DNA of 64,000 nucleotides, from the NCBI RefSeq assembly GCF_017901155.1, contig NZ_CP072800.1, forward strand, positions 310,001 to 374,000, given 5' to 3'. The notes under the pieces are model-generated. The model was given only the letters and a program-made list of their open reading frames with translations, had not been told where the DNA came from and did no database searches. The stretch's first letter is position 1. Each line of letters opens with the position of its first letter. This stretch comes from Candidatus Thiothrix anitrata (lineage in GTDB: Bacteria > Pseudomonadota > Gammaproteobacteria > Thiotrichales > Thiotrichaceae). Made by a program: the position numbers and the translations under genes. This document shows, piece by piece, positions 30,053-43,642 of the stretch.

Positions 30053-30621
30053 TCTGGGAACTCGCGTTACAGTCGCACCCCGCCACACCCTGCCCCGCTA
30101 TCCACACATTAAATGCCAAGGTGGAACGGCTGGCAGATGGTAGCCTGCACCTGCAATACACCTTACGCGGCGACATCACGCAAGTACGCATCCCCGCACC
30201 ACAACCGCCCGTTTTTACTGACGGCTTGTGGCAACACACCTGCTTCGAGGCATTCGTCGCTGTCAAAGGTGAAACCGCCTACCGCGAGTTCAACTTTTCC
30301 CCCTCCAGCCAGTGGGCAGCCTACGCCTTCAGCGACTACCGCCAGCCAGTTGAATCACCTCTCCTTCTTGCCCCCTCCCCCCCCTGCGGGGGAAGGGCTG
30401 GGGATGGGGGGGAATGTTCGGAGCAAGATAGCCAATCCACCTATCAACTGGATGCCAGCATCCCATCCTCCGCCCTGCCCGCCGCCGCACCGCTACAACT
30501 CGCCCTCACCGCTGTCATCGAACTCACCGACGGCAGCAAATCCTACTGGGCGTTAAAACACCCCAGCGAACGCCCCGACTTCCATCACCGTGACGGATTT
30601 ATGCATGAAATTTGGTCTTGA
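30049..30621 (+). CDS. DOMON-like domain protein with low-complexity insert
   Basis: 190 residues resembling the cytoplasmic DOMON-like/CBM9-related family: LHLQYTLRGDITQVRIP, DGLWQHTCFEAFV, YREFNFSPSSQWAAYAF and the terminal WALKHPSERPDFHHRDGF. Function of this family is not established. Residues about 104-123 (APSPPCGGRAGDGGE region) are encoded by a C-rich/G-rich half-palindrome at 30370-30412. They interrupt the fold between two conserved strands and are probably an in-frame repeat insertion. Confidence 0.78.
   Translation: MIWELALQSHPATPCPAIHTLNAKVERLADGSLHLQYTLRGDITQVRIPAPQPPVFTDGLWQHTCFEAFVAVKGETAYREFNFSPSSQWAAYAFSDYRQPVESPLLLAPSPPCGGRAGDGGECSEQDSQSTYQLDASIPSSALPAAAPLQLALTAVIELTDGSKSYWALKHPSERPDFHHRDGFMHEIWS
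30370..30414. repeat. GC-rich half-palindrome in the DOMON-like gene
   Basis: CCCCCTCCCCCCCC then GCGGGGGAAGGGCTGGGGATGGGG. The arms CCCTCCCCC/GGGGGAAGGG are imperfectly complementary. Composition and encoded peptide (PSPPCGGRAGDGG) resemble a decayed copy of the type of element found in cydD. The match is by pattern, not alignment. Confidence 0.6.
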
Positions 30622-37328: not shown

Positions 37329-37655
37329 ATGGAAAATTTGCTGTTAATTGCCATACTCGGCGCGGGCGTGTGGTTCTGGATCGACTCAATGAACGCCCGC
37401 GAACGCGCCATCGCAGCGGCAGCACGCGCCTGCCAGTCCATCAATGTGCAACTGCTGGATCAAACGGTTTCGCTGGAAAGCCTAAAACCGGCACGAAATA
37501 ATGCTGGGCACTTAGTGTGGCGACGCACTTACGGATTTGAATACAGCATACAAGGTGTGGAACGCCGGAGCGGACGGGCGATTTTGCGTGGGCGTGTGCT
37601 GGAACAAGTGCAATTGGATAGCGACAGCGGCACAACGATTGAGCAGCATGAGTGA
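37329..37655 (+). CDS. DUF3301 protein
   Basis: 108 residues starting at ATG 37329; the open frame further upstream overlaps the divergent proC. An N-terminal membrane helix (LLLIAILGAGVWFWIDSM) is followed by a soluble domain with ARACQSINVQLLDQTVSLESLKPAR and YGFEYSIQGVERRSGRAILRG. This matches the DUF3301 family, widespread in gammaproteobacteria and of unknown function. Confidence 0.88.
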   Translation: MENLLLIAILGAGVWFWIDSMNARERAIAAAARACQSINVQLLDQTVSLESLKPARNNAGHLVWRRTYGFEYSIQGVERRSGRAILRGRVLEQVQLDSDSGTTIEQHE

Positions 37656-37656
37656 A

Positions 37657-37692
37657 GAAAACCCGGCAAGTGCGAGGAGTAGCACTTGCCGG
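37657..37692 (-). terminator. Terminator of the NHL/FN3 repeat gene
   Basis: A perfect 11-bp stem CCGGCAAGTGC / GCACTTGCCGG (37663-37692), followed on the minus strand by GTTTTCTT. It lies 40 nt past the stop at 37733. Confidence 0.8.
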
Positions 37693-37732
37693 AAGTTAGA
37701 TCATGCCAAAAATAGTATTCGAGCAGCAATCA

Positions 37733-38452
37733 TTAGGGAGTCTTCACTGTGGCGATGTTGGAAGCAGCGGAGACACCCGTACCTCTGACTGCCCGTACCC
37801 GGTAACGGTAGGCTGTTTTACCGGCAACGGTTGTATCACTGAAGGAAATGGCATTCGCCGCTGTGGTACGGATGCGGGCGAAGTTGGTGCAGGTTGTTCC
37901 CTTGCAACGCTCTACGGCAAACCCACTTTCATCCTTACTATTGTCTTTCCATGTCAGATTGACTTTAGTACTGGTGGCAGCTTTTGCGACGAGACTGCTA
38001 GGGCTGGCCGGTAACGTCATCGCTGTCACAACATTACTGTAACCGGACCGTTCTGAGCCACGAACTGCCCTGACTTTGTAGCGGTATGCCGTGCTGGCTG
38101 CCAATCCGGTGTTGGTGTAGGTAGTGGCATTCGCCGCCAAGGTAGTCAGCTTGGTAAAGGTGGTGCAACTAGAGCCGACACAACGCCACACTTCATAGCC
38201 CGTTTCGGTGCTGTTGCCATCCACCCATGTCAGTTTGAGGCTGGTACTGGTCAGCACCGTGCCAGTGACATTGCTGGGCGTTTTTAATGGCGGCAAGGTG
38301 GTGGCAGTGGCAATACCGCTGTAACCGGACCGTTCTGAGCCACGCACTGCCCTGACTTTGTAGCGGTACGCCGTGCTGGCTGCCAATCCGGTGTTGGTGT
38401 AGTTAGTGGCATTCGCCGCCAAGGTAGTCAGCTTGGTGAAGCTGCTGCAACT
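37733..38452 (-). CDS. C-terminal segment: FN3 domains 7 (part) to 9
   Basis: The frame resumes at SCSSFTKLTTLAANATNYTNTGL and carries the end of domain 7, all of domain 8 and a diverged domain 9 (LVAKAATSTKVNLTWKDNSKDESGFAVERC). It ends at NIATVKTP with stop 37733-37735. There is no sorting signal, PEP-CTERM-like motif or membrane anchor at the end. Confidence 0.65.
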   Translation of the reverse strand, partial: SCSSFTKLTTLAANATNYTNTGLAASTAYRYKVRAVRGSERSGYSGIATATTLPPLKTPSNVTGTVLTSTSLKLTWVDGNSTETGYEVWRCVGSSCTTFTKLTTLAANATTYTNTGLAASTAYRYKVRAVRGSERSGYSNVVTAMTLPASPSSLVAKAATSTKVNLTWKDNSKDESGFAVERCKGTTCTNFARIRTTAANAISFSDTTVAGKTAYRYRVRAVRGTGVSAASNIATVKTP

Positions 38453-39170
38453 GAGAGCCGACACAACGCCACACTTCATAGCCCGTTTCGGTGCTGTTGC
38501 CATCCACCCATGTCAGCCTGAGGCTGGTACTGGTCAGCACCGTGCCAGTGACATTGCTGGGCGTTTTTAATGGCGGCAAGGTGGTGGCAGTGGCAATACC
38601 GCTATAACCGGACCGTTCTGAGCCACGCACTGCCCTGACTTTGTAGCGGTATGCCGTGCTGGCTGCCAATCCGGTGTTGGTGTAGGTAGTGGCATTCGCC
38701 GCCAAGGTAGTCAGCTTGGTAAAGGTGGTGCAACTAGAGCCGACACAACGCCACACTTCATAGCCCGTTTCGGTGCTGTTGCCATCCACCCATGTCAGCC
38801 TGAGGCTGGTACTGGTCAGCACCGTGCCAGTGACATTGCTGGGCGTTTTTAATGGCGGCAAGGTGGTGGCTGTGGCAATACCGCTATAACCGGACCGTTC
38901 TGAGCCACGCACTGCCCTGACTTTGTAGCGGTACGCCGTGCTGGCTGCCAATCCGGTGTTGGTGTAGGTAGTGGCATTCGCCGCCAAGGTAGTCAGCTTG
39001 GTAAAGGTGGTGCAACTAGAGCCGACACAACGCCACACTTCATAGCCCGTTTCGGTGCTGTTGCCATCCACCCATGTCAGCCTGAGGCTGGTACTGCTCA
39101 GCACCGTGCCAGTGACGTTGCTGGGGATGCTCAATAGTGGCAGGGTCGTGCCGGTCACAATGTTACTGTA
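37990..39170 (-). repeat. Tandem 282-bp repeats within the FN3 array
   Basis: Four nearly identical copies of a 94-codon FN3 unit. The landmark AACCGGACCGTTCTGAGCCACG occurs at 38041, 38323, 38606 and 38888, giving intervals of 282, 283 and 282 bp. The 283 reflects the extra base near 38453. Flanking FN3 units are more diverged, which indicates recent expansion or gene conversion. Confidence 0.9.
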
Positions 39171-41360
39171 ACCGGAGGTGTCCTGATCCCGGATTGCCCG
39201 CACTTGGTAACGGTATACAGTACTCGCCGTCAACCCCGTGTTGGTGTAGCTGGAGAGATTGGCTGCCACGGTCGTCAGTTTGGTGAAGGACGTGCAGCCA
39301 GAGCCTACACAACGCCAGATTTCAAAGCCGGTTTCGTCACTGCTGTTATCCGTCCACGACAGATTCATCTTGGTGCTGCCGTTGACGGCTGCGCTCAAGG
39401 CTGAGGGTGCGACTGGCAACGCCAGCGTACTACTTTCGGCGATGTCACTGTAAGCGGAAACGTCCTCACCACGCACTGCCCGTATCCGATAACGGTACAG
39501 GGTATTGGCCTGCAAACTGCTGTCGGCATAGCTGCTAGCATCTGCCGCCACGTCGGCAAGCTTGCTGAAATCACTGCAACCACCGCCGCTGCAACGCTCC
39601 AGTTCAAACCCGGTTTCATCATCGCTGCTGTCTGTCCACGACAGATTCATCTTGGTGGTGCTGTTGGCGGCTGCAACCAAGGCAGAAGGTGCGACTGGTA
39701 ATACCAGCGTGCTGGTCGAGGCGATGTCGCTGTAAGCGGAAACGTCTACGCTACGTACTGCCCGTATCCGATAACTATATTCTGTCCCTGACTGTAAACC
39801 AGCCTCAATATAGCTTGTCTCATTTGCCGTTACCTCAGCCACTTTGGCAAAACCGCTGCATCCGTTACCGCTGCAACGCTCCAACTCAAAACCGGTTTCG
39901 TCGTCGCTGTTGTCTGTCCAAGAGATATTTATCCTAGTACCACTAAGCGTAGAAACACTCAAGTCACTGGGGGTAACCGGAGTAAATAAAGTAACAACAG
40001 ATAACGCATCAGTGTAACCTGAGTATAAACCACGACGAACGACTCGTACTCGATAACTATATGCAGTGTTAGGTTGTACAACCGTGTCAACATAGTTAGT
40101 TATACCCGTACTTATATTCGCAATTTTGCTGAAATCATTACAGCCAACATTTCCACAGCGTTCTAATTCAAAGCTAGCTAAACTTCCTGAATTACTACCC
40201 CACTCCAACGCCACCTGACTACTCTGGATACTTGTAGCATTAAGGTCAGTTGGAGCATCTGGAGAATATGCAAACAACTGAATGCGATAGTTTTCAGCAT
40301 CCACCACATAAATACTACCATCACTACTTATACCTATTCCTTTAGGAGAAATAAACTGACCATCATCATTACCCATGCCTCCCCATTTACTAAGAAATAT
40401 GCCATCAGAAGTGAATTTCTGAATGCGATTACTACTTCCATCTACAACATAAACGTTATCATTATTATCAATAGCAACATGAAAAGCCCCAATAAATTGA
40501 CTATCACCACTACCATATTCACCCCATTTACTAATAAACACCCCATCGCTAGAAAACTTCTGAATACGGCGATTATTCAAGTCTGTAATATAAACACTAT
40601 CATCATTACCAATAGCAATACCCCGAGGCTCATTAAACTGACCATCGTCACTGCCAGCACCTCCCCATTTTTGGAGGAATAGACCATCACTTGTGAATTT
40701 TTGAATACGATTATTGTAGCTATCCACCACATAAACACTATTATCACTACCAATAGCAATGCCCTCGGCTCTATTAAATTGACCATCACCAGCCCCTGCC
40801 TCTCCCCATTGGTTAATTAATTCACCACTGCTGGTGAATACCTTGACACTATTACTGTCTGTCACATAAACACGTTCATAACCATCAATTGCAAGTCCCA
40901 ATATGCCACTAGAAATTTTATCACTTTCACTGCCGTAGCCCCCCCACTTACTCACGAACTCCCCTTCCTCTGTAAACCTTCTGACATAGCCGTCGCTATC
41001 ATCACTCACATAAAAACCACCACCATGTTTACTTAGCCCAATATTATCTGGAGTAAGGAAATGCTGATCTTTATTCTCAGGAGCACCCCATTTGCCAACA
41101 AATAAACCATTACCAGAAAGCTTCTGAATACGATTATTGCCACTATCTGATACATAAATATAATTATTATCAACAAAAAAATCTGATGGCGAAGAAAACT
41201 GACCATCTCCACTACCACTTCTACTACCCTCCCATATACTAACAAATACGCCGTCTGTGGTAAACTTTTGAACACGATTATAATTATCTATTACATAAAC
41301 ATCTCCAGCATTATTGATTGATATGCTTCGTGGATATACGAACTCTCCATCTCCCATTCC
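38454..41360 (-). CDS. Central segment: remaining NHL repeats and FN3 domains 1-7
   Basis: This is the longest open part (open frame 38403-41372). Eight or nine NHL repeats come first, ending FISPKGIGISSDGSIYVVDAENYRIQ. FN3 domains follow from APTDLNATSIQSSQVALEW. Domains 2-4 share NLSWTD.SDDETGFELERCSG; domains 5-7 share the LTWVDGNSTETGYEVWRCVG form. The frame breaks inside domain 7 after WRCVGS because of one extra base near 38453. Confidence 0.7.
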
Positions 41361-41375
41361 ACCCCACCCCACCCC
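41361..41375 (-). repeat. Pentanucleotide tract (ACCCC)x3 causing a frameshift
   Basis: On the coding strand the tract is GGGGT x3, where other repeats of the protein would have W-G-G-M-G (one unit). The two extra units add 10 bp and shift the frame. One or four units would keep the NHL repeats in frame. Confidence 0.8.
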
Positions 41376-42041
41376 ATTTATTTAAGAATATGCCGTCACC
41401 TGTGAATTTCTGAATGCGGTTATTTCCCTGATCTGCCACATAAACATTACTATCACTATCAATGCTAATATCTGATAGATAAGAAAATTGTCCATCTCCG
41501 CTACCAACTACACCCCACTTTCCAATGTAAGCACCCTCACTCGAAAAGTACTGAATGCGGTCATTTCCTTTATCGGCTACATAAACATCTCCATTACTAT
41601 TAACAGCAATGCCTCGCGGACTAAGGAACTGACCGTCACCACTCCCGCGACTTCCCCATTTACTGATAAATGTACCATCACTTGCGAAGTGTTGAATACG
41701 GGCATTATTATAGTCAAGCACATAAACGTCACCATTATTACCAATAGCAATGCTTTGAGGACTAGAAAATTGACCATCACCCGAACCGTATCGCCCCCAA
41801 CTACCCAGTAACACACCATCATCGGTGAATTTTTGGATGCGACTGTGACCACTATCCGCTACATAAACAACTCCAGTATTACTATTTACGACCACTCCTC
41901 CTGGTGCACGTAACCAGTTCCCCAAGCTACTTATAAACGACGGCGAATCCTCCGCCCATACATTAAAAGGAAAGACTGAAAACAAGAATAAAAAAACAAT
42001 GAAACAACACTGCCATGAACCGAACGTATACGGGAATTCAT
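41376..42041 (-). CDS. N-terminal segment: signal peptide and first NHL repeats
   Basis: The open frame covering 41311-42144 encodes the mature N-terminus (EDSPSFISSLGNWLRAPGG) and the first four NHL repeats, such as GDVYVADKGNDRIQYF. Started at the ATG at 42041 in the other frame, with one T added at 41990-41996, the leader becomes MNSRIRSVHGSVVSLFF followed by LFLFSVFPFNVWA, a good signal peptide. The in-frame upstream ATG at 42144 lacks a ribosome site and gives an implausible leader. The frame is lost at the ACCCC repeat. Confidence 0.6.
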
Positions 42042-42456
42042 AATAATCTCCCCCAGAACTGATTCTGGAAATCACAAGCTCTATTAAAAATGCATACAAC
42101 AGAGATGCACATTCATACCTAATTGTGAAAATATGAATACACACAAAACCAAAACTTTCCCTAATTAACAGGGAAATCCAAAAATAGCGAAGGTCACAAA
42201 AACCCCTCTACATCCTTCATTTACAAGCCTACGACTTAACCGTAGCAAAGTGTTTTCTATATAACAAAAGTTATCGAACATTTTATTGACGTAATGATCA
42301 AAAAATCGGGATAACGTTTTAAGGTTCATTTCGAAAGTTACCGAGATCGGTTAGATGTCACCGCCACGTTAGCCTAATAAAACACTTGGAAACGAACCAG
42401 CCCCGTTAAAACAAAAGTGTGGGAGCTGCTGCTCCCACAACCGCTAGATTTCGCAA
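42042..42456. other. Intergenic region upstream of the NHL/FN3 gene
   Basis: AT-rich, no convincing gene. It should hold the promoter of the NHL/FN3 gene on the minus strand; the TATATAAC around 42256-42264 is a candidate -10 region. The inverted repeat ATAACTTTTGTTAT lies next to it. The right end carries the terminator of the Ig-like gene. Confidence 0.4.
42411..42438 (-). terminator. Terminator of the Ig-like exported protein gene
   Basis: A perfect 8-bp stem GTGGGAGC / GCTCCCAC (42419-42438) with a tetraloop. On the minus strand it is followed by ACTTTTGTTTT. It lies 18 nt past the stop at 42457. Confidence 0.85.
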
Positions 42457-43279
42457 TCACTGGACATAGAAGCCAGGCCACTTAGCTAACACCTTACCAG
42501 TGCTATCTCTTGCTTCCATTGTTAACGTCCCCTTATAGCCCAAACTCATCGTGGTCGGCACTTTATAAGCAGCAGACCACGTCCCGTCTTTATCTGGGTC
42601 AGTCAAAACCGCCACCTGCGCCGTCCCCAACTTCGCTACTACTTTGCTCACCTTTGATGTCGGGGCCAGACACTTCCGCAAACAGGTTCACATACCCTCC
42701 CCGCTTAACACGTACTGGGGAAACCCAACCCCTATCGATAGAAACCGTAGTAGCCTTGCTGAGACTGATCATTCCCCAATCAATGTTGGTCGCCCAATTT
42801 CCTTTATTCTTTACGTCAATATCAACCCTGACTTTATTTTTGCCAGTTTTAAGAACTCCGCTAGGAATATCAAAGATATTAACTCCCCATATACCATCAC
42901 GACCATTCAACGTTCCAACATACTTGCCATTAACATATACCTTGTCAATCTCCCCTTGTGCTGCATCAATATCGTAAACATCCATGCGAAGAGTGCCATT
43001 CCTTCCCGCAACAGAAACCGGAATGTTGATATTAAATTCAACAGGATGATTAGAACTGGTATTGTACAAATAGGTATCCATGTCCCCATCTGCCACGCCC
43101 GTTCCTGCGTTATTTTCATTATCAAGATTAGTCAGATACTCACCGACTCCCGGAATTGGGGCTGCCGCCACGCCAATACTCGAATAAGCCTGCGAGCCAT
43201 CGTCACCCGCATAAGCAGCATTCGCAATTGCAAACATAATCAAAGAAGCCAAGCTCAATTTTACAAATTTACGTTTCAT
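42457..43279 (-). pseudogene. Exported Ig-like protein, frameshifted
   Basis: The first frame (43279 to about 42665) encodes a signal peptide (KLSLASLIMFAIANAAYA) and a mature domain with VEFNINIPVSVAG and LRMDVYDIDAAQGEIDKVYVNG, then WVSPVRVKRGGYVNLFAEVSGP. The second frame completes an Ig-like fold: SKVSKVVAKLGTAQVAVLTD, DGTWSAAYKVP and a terminal KWPGFYVQ. The two join smoothly if the G4 run at 42662-42665 (C4 on the coding strand) is read as three, giving about 273 residues. Function unknown; probably secreted or surface-exposed, perhaps with the neighbouring NHL/FN3 protein. Confidence 0.75.
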
Positions 43280-43399
43280 CTCAAACTTCTCCCTATTAAC
43301 TGAAGGTAACTAAAGTATACGTCCAGCAATGACAGTAGAAATTTAAATTCACTTAAAAATTGATGTAAATCACCATAATAATATGGGGGGGGGAATATT

Positions 43400-43642
43400 C
43401 TACTGCTGAATTTCTAACGCAGCCAATCGCTTTTCCAACGCTTCGAGCTTTTCGCGAGTGCGTAGTAACACGGCTGATTGAATATCAAACTCTTCGTGTG
43501 TCACCAGATTCATTTTTTGCAAACCGCCTTCGAGCAAACCACGCATGTTTTTTTCCACGTCTTCTTGCATGTGGCGCACAGGTTCGGGCAGAAGCGCGGA
43601 AAGCTTTTTTGCTAAATCATCAAGGTTGCCAAAGTTTTGCAT
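43400..43642 (-). CDS. ubiK: Ubiquinone biosynthesis accessory factor UbiK
   Basis: 80 residues from the ATG at 43640-43642, which follows an AGGAGA ribosome site; the longer open frame is not needed. It matches the UbiK/YqiC family (BMFP type): LAKKLSALLPEPV, MRGLLEGGLQKMNLVTHEEFDIQ and a C-terminal coiled coil REKLEALEKRLAALE. UbiK helps the Ubi enzyme complex and binds membranes. Typical length is 80-100. Confidence 0.93.
   Translation of the reverse strand: MQNFGNLDDLAKKLSALLPEPVRHMQEDVEKNMRGLLEGGLQKMNLVTHEEFDIQSAVLLRTREKLEALEKRLAALEIQQ

What the first reader, a model, noticed from the sequence alone, without database searches (positions are those of the whole stretch)
37733..43279. Four frame breaks in two adjacent exported-protein genes
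The NHL/FN3 gene has breaks at a T7 tract, a pentanucleotide repeat and a one-base insertion; the neighbouring Ig-like gene has one at a C4 run. Outside these points both genes are fully open over 5.4 kb. Breaks at slippage-prone tracts in surface proteins suggest contingency loci or very recent inactivation. Assembly errors at homopolymers are a serious alternative.
Basis: partly seen in the sequence, partly recalled or inferred. Interest (0 to 1): 0.65.

Follow-up and report, generated by a model that had tools for sequence, protein, structure and literature searches.

The report
Two broken accessory surface-protein genes
A sulfur bacterium's genome carries a small extra block of two exported-protein genes whose reading frames are interrupted at about four places; this is most likely ordinary gene decay in a dispensable block, with a sequencing artefact still possible and an on/off switch unlikely.

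Summary
The frame breaks are there. Two minus-strand genes (NHL beta-propeller plus FN3 array, 37733-42041; a smaller exported protein, 42457-43279) are open in pieces joined by four frame changes. Break 1 is pinned to about 38453 by sister FN3 units. Break 2 coincides with a pentamer x3, the only one in 744 kb sampled of this genome. Break 3 (T7) is inferred from start codon, ribosome-binding site and signal peptide. Break 4 lies anywhere in 42599-42688.

The genes form a 5.77-kb block; the nearest held relative has 43 bp there. The assembly does contain an apparently uncorrected long-read stretch, but its errors are mostly one-base deletions in C/G runs; the block lacks that signature (100 runs, about 6 deletions expected, none assigned). 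Three independent breaks in one gene, at short or no tracts, argue against contingency loci. Best reading: recent real inactivation of dispensable genes (about 0.6); consensus artefact about 0.33; contingency about 0.06. Read mapping would decide.

The parts
37652..43419 (.). block of 5.77 kb between the small gene ending at 37655 and the ubiK-like gene ending at 43400 (gene name recalled); the nearest held relative, G010, has 43 bp between the matching flanks
37733..38503 (-). gene 1, last piece: FN3 (2 stretches, Pfam) and end of gene
38403..41372 (-). gene 1, main piece: NHL repeats and FN3 domains (Pfam fn3 2.6e-56, NHL 1.9e-35)
41311..42144 (-). gene 1, front piece: signal-peptide core and NHL repeats; the part above 42041 is probably not translated (inference)
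41931..42041 (-). gene 1, start piece: ATG at 42041 in another frame, n-region of the signal peptide
42048..42054 (-). GGGGGAG, likely ribosome-binding site six bases before ATG 42041
   Evidence: read directly
38451..38456 (-). break 1: one extra base against sister FN3 units (+1 class), in a cluster of substitutions; not a homopolymer
41359..41376 (-). break 2: pentamer repeat x3 (+1 class); stops bracket the break to 41311-41382
41990..41996 (-). break 3 (inferred): T7 on the gene strand (-1 class); stops bracket the break to 41931-42072
42599..42688 (-). break 4: bracket in which the frame changes (+1 class); contains the C4 run 42662-42665 but is not pinned to it
42599..43279 (-). gene 2, front piece: signal peptide by eye, and a beta-sandwich domain resembling carbohydrate-binding modules
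42457..42681 (-). gene 2, end piece; no Pfam family above its cut-off
37662..37693 (-). terminator-like hairpin after gene 1
   Evidence: terminator-like sites in the region: 9 found, 6.0 expected
42418..42439 (-). terminator-like hairpin after gene 2
38037..39336 (-). tandem array of FN3 units, period 282 bp, 4.6 copies, 92% matches
43385..43393 (-). C9 on the gene strand, about 105 bp upstream of the gene 2 ATG; one of four C/G runs of 9 or more in 744 kb sampled

Best explanation
The two genes belong to a small accessory block that is present here and absent from the nearest held relative. Gene 1 encoded an exported NHL beta-propeller followed by an FN3 array; gene 2 an exported protein with a carbohydrate-binding-like beta-sandwich. 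Both were inactivated recently by small insertions and deletions (a short pentamer expansion, a homopolymer slip, one-base changes) that were tolerated because the block is dispensable, so neither yields its long exported product. Shown: the frame changes, the block's absence in the nearest relative, intact homologues of gene 1's layout in another species of the genus, and a break spectrum unlike the error-rich part of this assembly. Inferred: that the indels exist in the cells, that the proteins are not made, and that selection is relaxed.
For: The block is 5.77 kb here and 43 bp in G010, with 94-96% identical flanks. Of 39 other genomes searched with the block's DNA, 2 had a match, of 33 and 75 bp. 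G003 has two one-frame homologues with the NHL-FN3 layout, 881 and 877 aa. The left flank aligns to G010 without a frame-changing gap over 9.0 kb. In the error-rich duplication, gaps against G010 are mostly one-base deletions at C/G runs, 16 of 281 runs of 3 or more being hit in one copy; the two genes have 100 such runs, where 5.7 to 6.6 deletions would be expected, and none is assigned (P 0.003 pooled, 0.0009 by run length). Three of the four breaks are of the +1 class. The C7 at 40939 inside an open frame suggests that short-read correction reached the block (inference). The block is single copy.
Against: No reads were available. The genome appears to be a metagenome-derived Nanopore assembly with two other Thiothrix MAGs in the sample, so a mixed consensus could make such breaks; break 1, in near-identical units and a cluster of substitutions, is what that might look like. 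Without the 30-bp filter the frame-switch detector calls more events here than in controls even outside the duplication: 21 in 357 kb and 29 in 400 kb, against 16 (G010) and 19 (G003) in 400 kb each (my subtraction). Three further compared stretches (48 kb) that align to G010 show 13 one-base deletions and 7 one-base insertions, coding or not. Four frameshifts and no nonsense codon fits indel error slightly better than neutral decay (inference). Break 3 depends on the start codon.
Confidence: 0.6

Rival explanations
1. Consensus artefact: the genes are intact in the cells, and the breaks come from imperfect correction of long reads or from a consensus that mixes alleles of related strains in the metagenome.
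For: The assembly route was Flye on Nanopore reads plus two Pilon rounds, in a metagenome with three Thiothrix MAGs (PMC8570282, passages). The same contig holds a 13.5-kb tandem duplication (one match in G010, two here) in which genes are cut in many places. Break 1 lies in repeat units 97-98% alike. Many putative pseudogenes in public genomes are attributed to assembly errors (PMC11017572, abstract). The looser detector counts are higher here than in the controls.
Against: The break classes (three +1, one -1) and the untouched C/G runs differ from the error-rich stretch. The block is single copy in the genome, so short reads should map uniquely at breaks 2-4. With the stricter filter there is no clear excess away from the duplication: 10 events in 357 kb (one of them break 1) and 6 in 360 kb here, 7 and 10 in 400 kb each for G010 and G003.
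Confidence: 0.33
2. Contingency loci: the tracts slip reversibly and switch the surface proteins on and off.
For: Exported repeat proteins are typical cargo of such switches (established knowledge). The pentamer x3 is the only one in 744 kb sampled, and a C9 run lies about 105 bp upstream of gene 2. One sentence in PMC5953494 would admit units of 5 at 3 copies.
Against: T7 and C4 are below that paper's cut-offs and the pentamer is below its stated 5; break 1 is at no tract; gene 1 needs three coincident events; break 4 is not pinned to a tract; runs like T7 and C4 are common here.
Confidence: 0.06
3. One break fewer (compatible with any of the above): gene 1 starts in the frame of the front piece with GTG or TTG, so break 3 does not exist.
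For: That frame is open to 42144.
Against: The ATG at 42041 has a well-placed GGGGGAG and a basic n-region, and AEDSPSF after the signal-peptide core resembles AEDPPSL of an intact homologue in G003.
Confidence: 0.12

Closest known systems
NHL-FN3 exported proteins of another species of the genus (G003, 881 and 877 aa)
   Same: NHL repeats, then FN3 domains; signal peptide by eye
   Different: one open frame each; about 30-37% identical over the long BLAST matches
Frameshifted bacterial pseudogenes
   Same: open pieces in order, short indels, accessory genes
   Different: not confirmed by reads; no nonsense codon
SSR-based phase-variable (contingency) genes, e.g. the Neisseria phasome (PMC5953494, passages)
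   Same: exported proteins; two breaks coincide with short repeats
   Different: tracts short, several independent breaks in one gene, no tract variation shown
ScyF (NCBIfam NF035926)
   Same: NHL region of the main piece scores 198 bits
   Different: below the curated cut-off of 350 bits; genomic context of scytonemin genes not examined

Membership tests
Pseudogene (frameshifted) | frame interrupted relative to intact homologues | tested here: met
   gene 1; gene 2 has only homologues of its front domain, so for it the end piece is joined by coding score and position alone
Pseudogene (frameshifted) | interruption present in the organism's DNA, not only in the consensus | not testable with these tools
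   no reads held
SSR contingency locus | tract long enough for frequent slippage (A/T 11+, G/C 9+, pentamer 5+ in PMC5953494) | tested here: not met
   T7, pentamer x3, C4; the paper's wording on pentamers is not consistent; the C9 upstream of gene 2 meets the length but is not a frame break
SSR contingency locus | slippage at one tract restores the frame | tested here: not met
   gene 1 has three breaks (two if break 3 is dropped), one at no tract
SSR contingency locus | tract length varies among cells or strains | not testable with these tools
   one genome per species held; no long DNA match to the block in 39 other genomes
Uncorrected Nanopore stretch | mostly one-base deletions at C/G runs | tested here: not met
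   0 assigned of 100 runs, against 16 of 281 in the error-rich stretch
Uncorrected Nanopore stretch | lies in repeated DNA that short reads cannot correct | tested here: inconclusive
   met for break 1, not for breaks 2-4
ScyF (NF035926) | score above curated cut-off | tested here: not met
   198.2 of 350 bits
Ig-like protein (gene 2) | match to an Ig-type family | tested here: not met
   no Ig family among Pfam matches of either piece; the modelled front domain resembles carbohydrate-binding beta-sandwiches at low confidence

The most novel reading that the evidence does not exclude
The block is a young contingency cassette in a free-living sulfur bacterium: a pentamer array inside gene 1 and a C9 run upstream of gene 2 slip often enough that the population holds on and off variants, and the consensus happens to show an off state.
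Probability: 0.05. Interest if true: 0.5.

Novelty: new member of a known kind. Interest (0 to 1): 0.2.

Why it matters
Mainly as a caution: the breaks are real features of the held sequence but are not evidence of switching. The same contig holds a 13.5-kb duplicated stretch of likely uncorrected errors in housekeeping-type genes, which matters for anyone using this genome. If the breaks are real, the spot beside the ubiK-like gene is a place where exported-protein genes differ between close species.

Tried and rejected
A periodicity-based frame-switch detector was first too lenient and called none of the known breaks, because it accepted any start codon near a stop. Tightened it calls break 1, and at its looser setting also break 4; break 1 is the only known break among the listed events. 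It therefore compares genomes and does not count breaks. Some of its events are false (own 97489 lies in a frame open for 2.3 kb more) or occur alike in G010 (own 170583 and G010 214439), so are probably ordinary neighbours.

A search of plasmid records with the block found nothing; phage records were not searched. The structure model of gene 2's front piece has mean pLDDT 51.8, with residues 81-170 at about 67-84; its PDB matches are weak by TM-score (0.27-0.38 on the query) although 36 have E of 0.001 or less. Papers: 0 join Thiothrix and 'phase variation'; 3 join Thiothrix, pseudogene and frameshift, listing seen only; two further searches gave listings of which only PMC11017572 was opened (abstract and outline). 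PMC9319827 was seen in passages and not used. Promoter-like hits are at chance level (9 found, 10.8 expected), so the C9 could not be tied to a promoter.

Frame classes, counted by hand from the printed alignment of duplication copy B with G010: 22 frame-changing gaps, 4 of the +1 class, which makes three or more +1 among four breaks about a 2% event; two of those gaps lie at the alignment's end, and copy A was not tallied.
Full report
What is there. The window lies at 310001-374000 of a single 3,546,315-bp contig. That length equals the one given for 'Candidatus Thiothrix anitrata' A52, CP072800, in PMC8570282 (passages seen); the identity is inferred from length alone. That genome was assembled with Flye from Nanopore reads of a spring metagenome, closed by hand and corrected twice with Pilon; three MAGs of the sample, A52 included, were assigned to Thiothrix.

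Gene 1 (minus strand, 42041 to 37733) is an exported NHL beta-propeller followed by FN3 domains (Pfam), with a tandem array of 282-bp FN3 units and a terminator-like hairpin after it (such sites are only slightly above chance in the region). Gene 2 (43279 to 42457) begins with a signal peptide by eye. Its front domain has matches in 5 of 368 other genomes of the class, three of them over most of residues 47-175 and two over part, and in one Anaerolinea record. Its model is a beta-sandwich that resembles carbohydrate-binding modules, at low confidence. No Ig family was found for either piece, so the label 'Ig-like' is not supported by those searches.

The breaks. Stops bracket break 1 to 38403-38513, break 2 to 41311-41382, break 3 to 41931-42072 and break 4 to 42599-42688. 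Sister units pin break 1 to about 38453: one extra base within a cluster of substitutions, the unit being otherwise 97-98% like two sisters. Break 2 holds the only pentamer of three or more copies in 744 kb sampled. Break 3 rests on the ATG at 42041 and its upstream GGGGGAG. Break 4 could be at C4 or elsewhere in its bracket; homologues do not reach across it, since the end piece found no relative in the seven loci compared. Frame classes are +1, +1, -1, +1 for breaks 1 to 4 (from the frames). Per-bin coding scores follow breaks 1, 2 and 4.

The block. In G010 the flanking genes are adjacent: DNA matches end at window 37651 and resume at 43420, 43 bp apart in G010, with 94-96% identity. In G002 the same spot holds a different gene with YadA stalk and anchor domains. 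Within the 9.5 kb fetched, the neighbour order is seen in G010 and G002 only, of 15 relatives. So the content of this spot differs between species; whether this lineage gained the block or G010 lost it is not settled. Names of the flanking genes (ubiK, proC and others) are recalled from their sequences and come from no call.

Artefact or real. Conserved genes: 185 of 751 relative ORFs gave 173,490 aligned bases and 2 candidate frame splits in this genome, one of them possibly only a gap; the reverse comparison gave 174 of 688, 167,427 bases and 2. Against that rate four in 5.5 kb is far from chance, but accessory genes decay faster than conserved ones. Positive control for error: a tandem 13.5-kb duplication at about genome 514.3-541.3 kb, 99.08% identical between copies, matched twice here and once in G010, has many one-base deletions at C/G runs relative to G010: 16 of 281 runs of three or more in one copy. 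The two genes have 100 such runs; 5.7 to 6.6 deletions would be expected and none is assigned (P 0.003 pooled, 0.0009 by run length). This argues that the block was corrected like the rest, though a mixed-strain consensus is not excluded.

Results that cut the other way. The detector with a 30-bp filter gives 21 events in 384 kb here (11 in the duplication, one being break 1) and 6 in 360 kb elsewhere in this genome, against 7 and 10 in 400 kb for G010 and G003: no clear excess. Without that filter this genome has 42 in 384 kb (21 in the duplication) and 29 in 400 kb, against 16 and 19 in 400 kb: a modest excess outside the duplication too. Three other stretches, 48 kb in all, show 13 one-base deletions and 7 one-base insertions against G010, coding and non-coding together.

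Contingency. Published cut-offs for Neisseria are G/C 9 or more, A/T 11 or more and pentamers 5 or more; one sentence of the same methods also names 3 copies for units of 5 to 9, while the table note says 6 to 9 (PMC5953494, passages). T7 and C4 do not meet them, the pentamer only under that one sentence. The C9 run at 43385-43393, upstream of gene 2, does meet them and is one of four such runs in 744 kb; it is kept as a basis of the novel reading.

Verdict. Two accessory exported-protein genes, most likely recently inactivated; artefact is the main rival; switching is unlikely. Ordinary, low interest.

Noticed in passing
own genome about 514305-541303 (in L121 and L122): Tandem 13.5-kb duplication, 99.08% identical, with housekeeping-type genes (names such as rodA and mrdA recalled from sequence) cut in many frames in both copies; one match in G010. 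Likely uncorrected long-read errors and perhaps a false duplication.
   Followed up: partly
window 43385-43393: C9/G9 run about 105 bp upstream of gene 2, one of four C/G runs of 9 or more in 744 kb sampled.
   Followed up: partly
L130:6320-7537: In G002 the same spot beside the ubiK-like gene holds a 405-aa protein with YadA stalk and anchor domains.
   Followed up: partly
L139:1478-1706: In G004 the ubiK-like gene is split between two overlapping matches, suggesting a frameshift or an assembly error there.
   Followed up: no
own genome about 171278 (L107 about 1278): A homologue of a 5556-aa G010 ORF changes frame here.
   Followed up: no
own genome about 385993 (own string 215993): Detector event in an accessory-looking gene cluster, first frame open 197 bp past the switch; a possible further frameshift.
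   Followed up: no
window 30377-30412: C8 and G7 runs whose starts are 29 bp apart.
   Followed up: no
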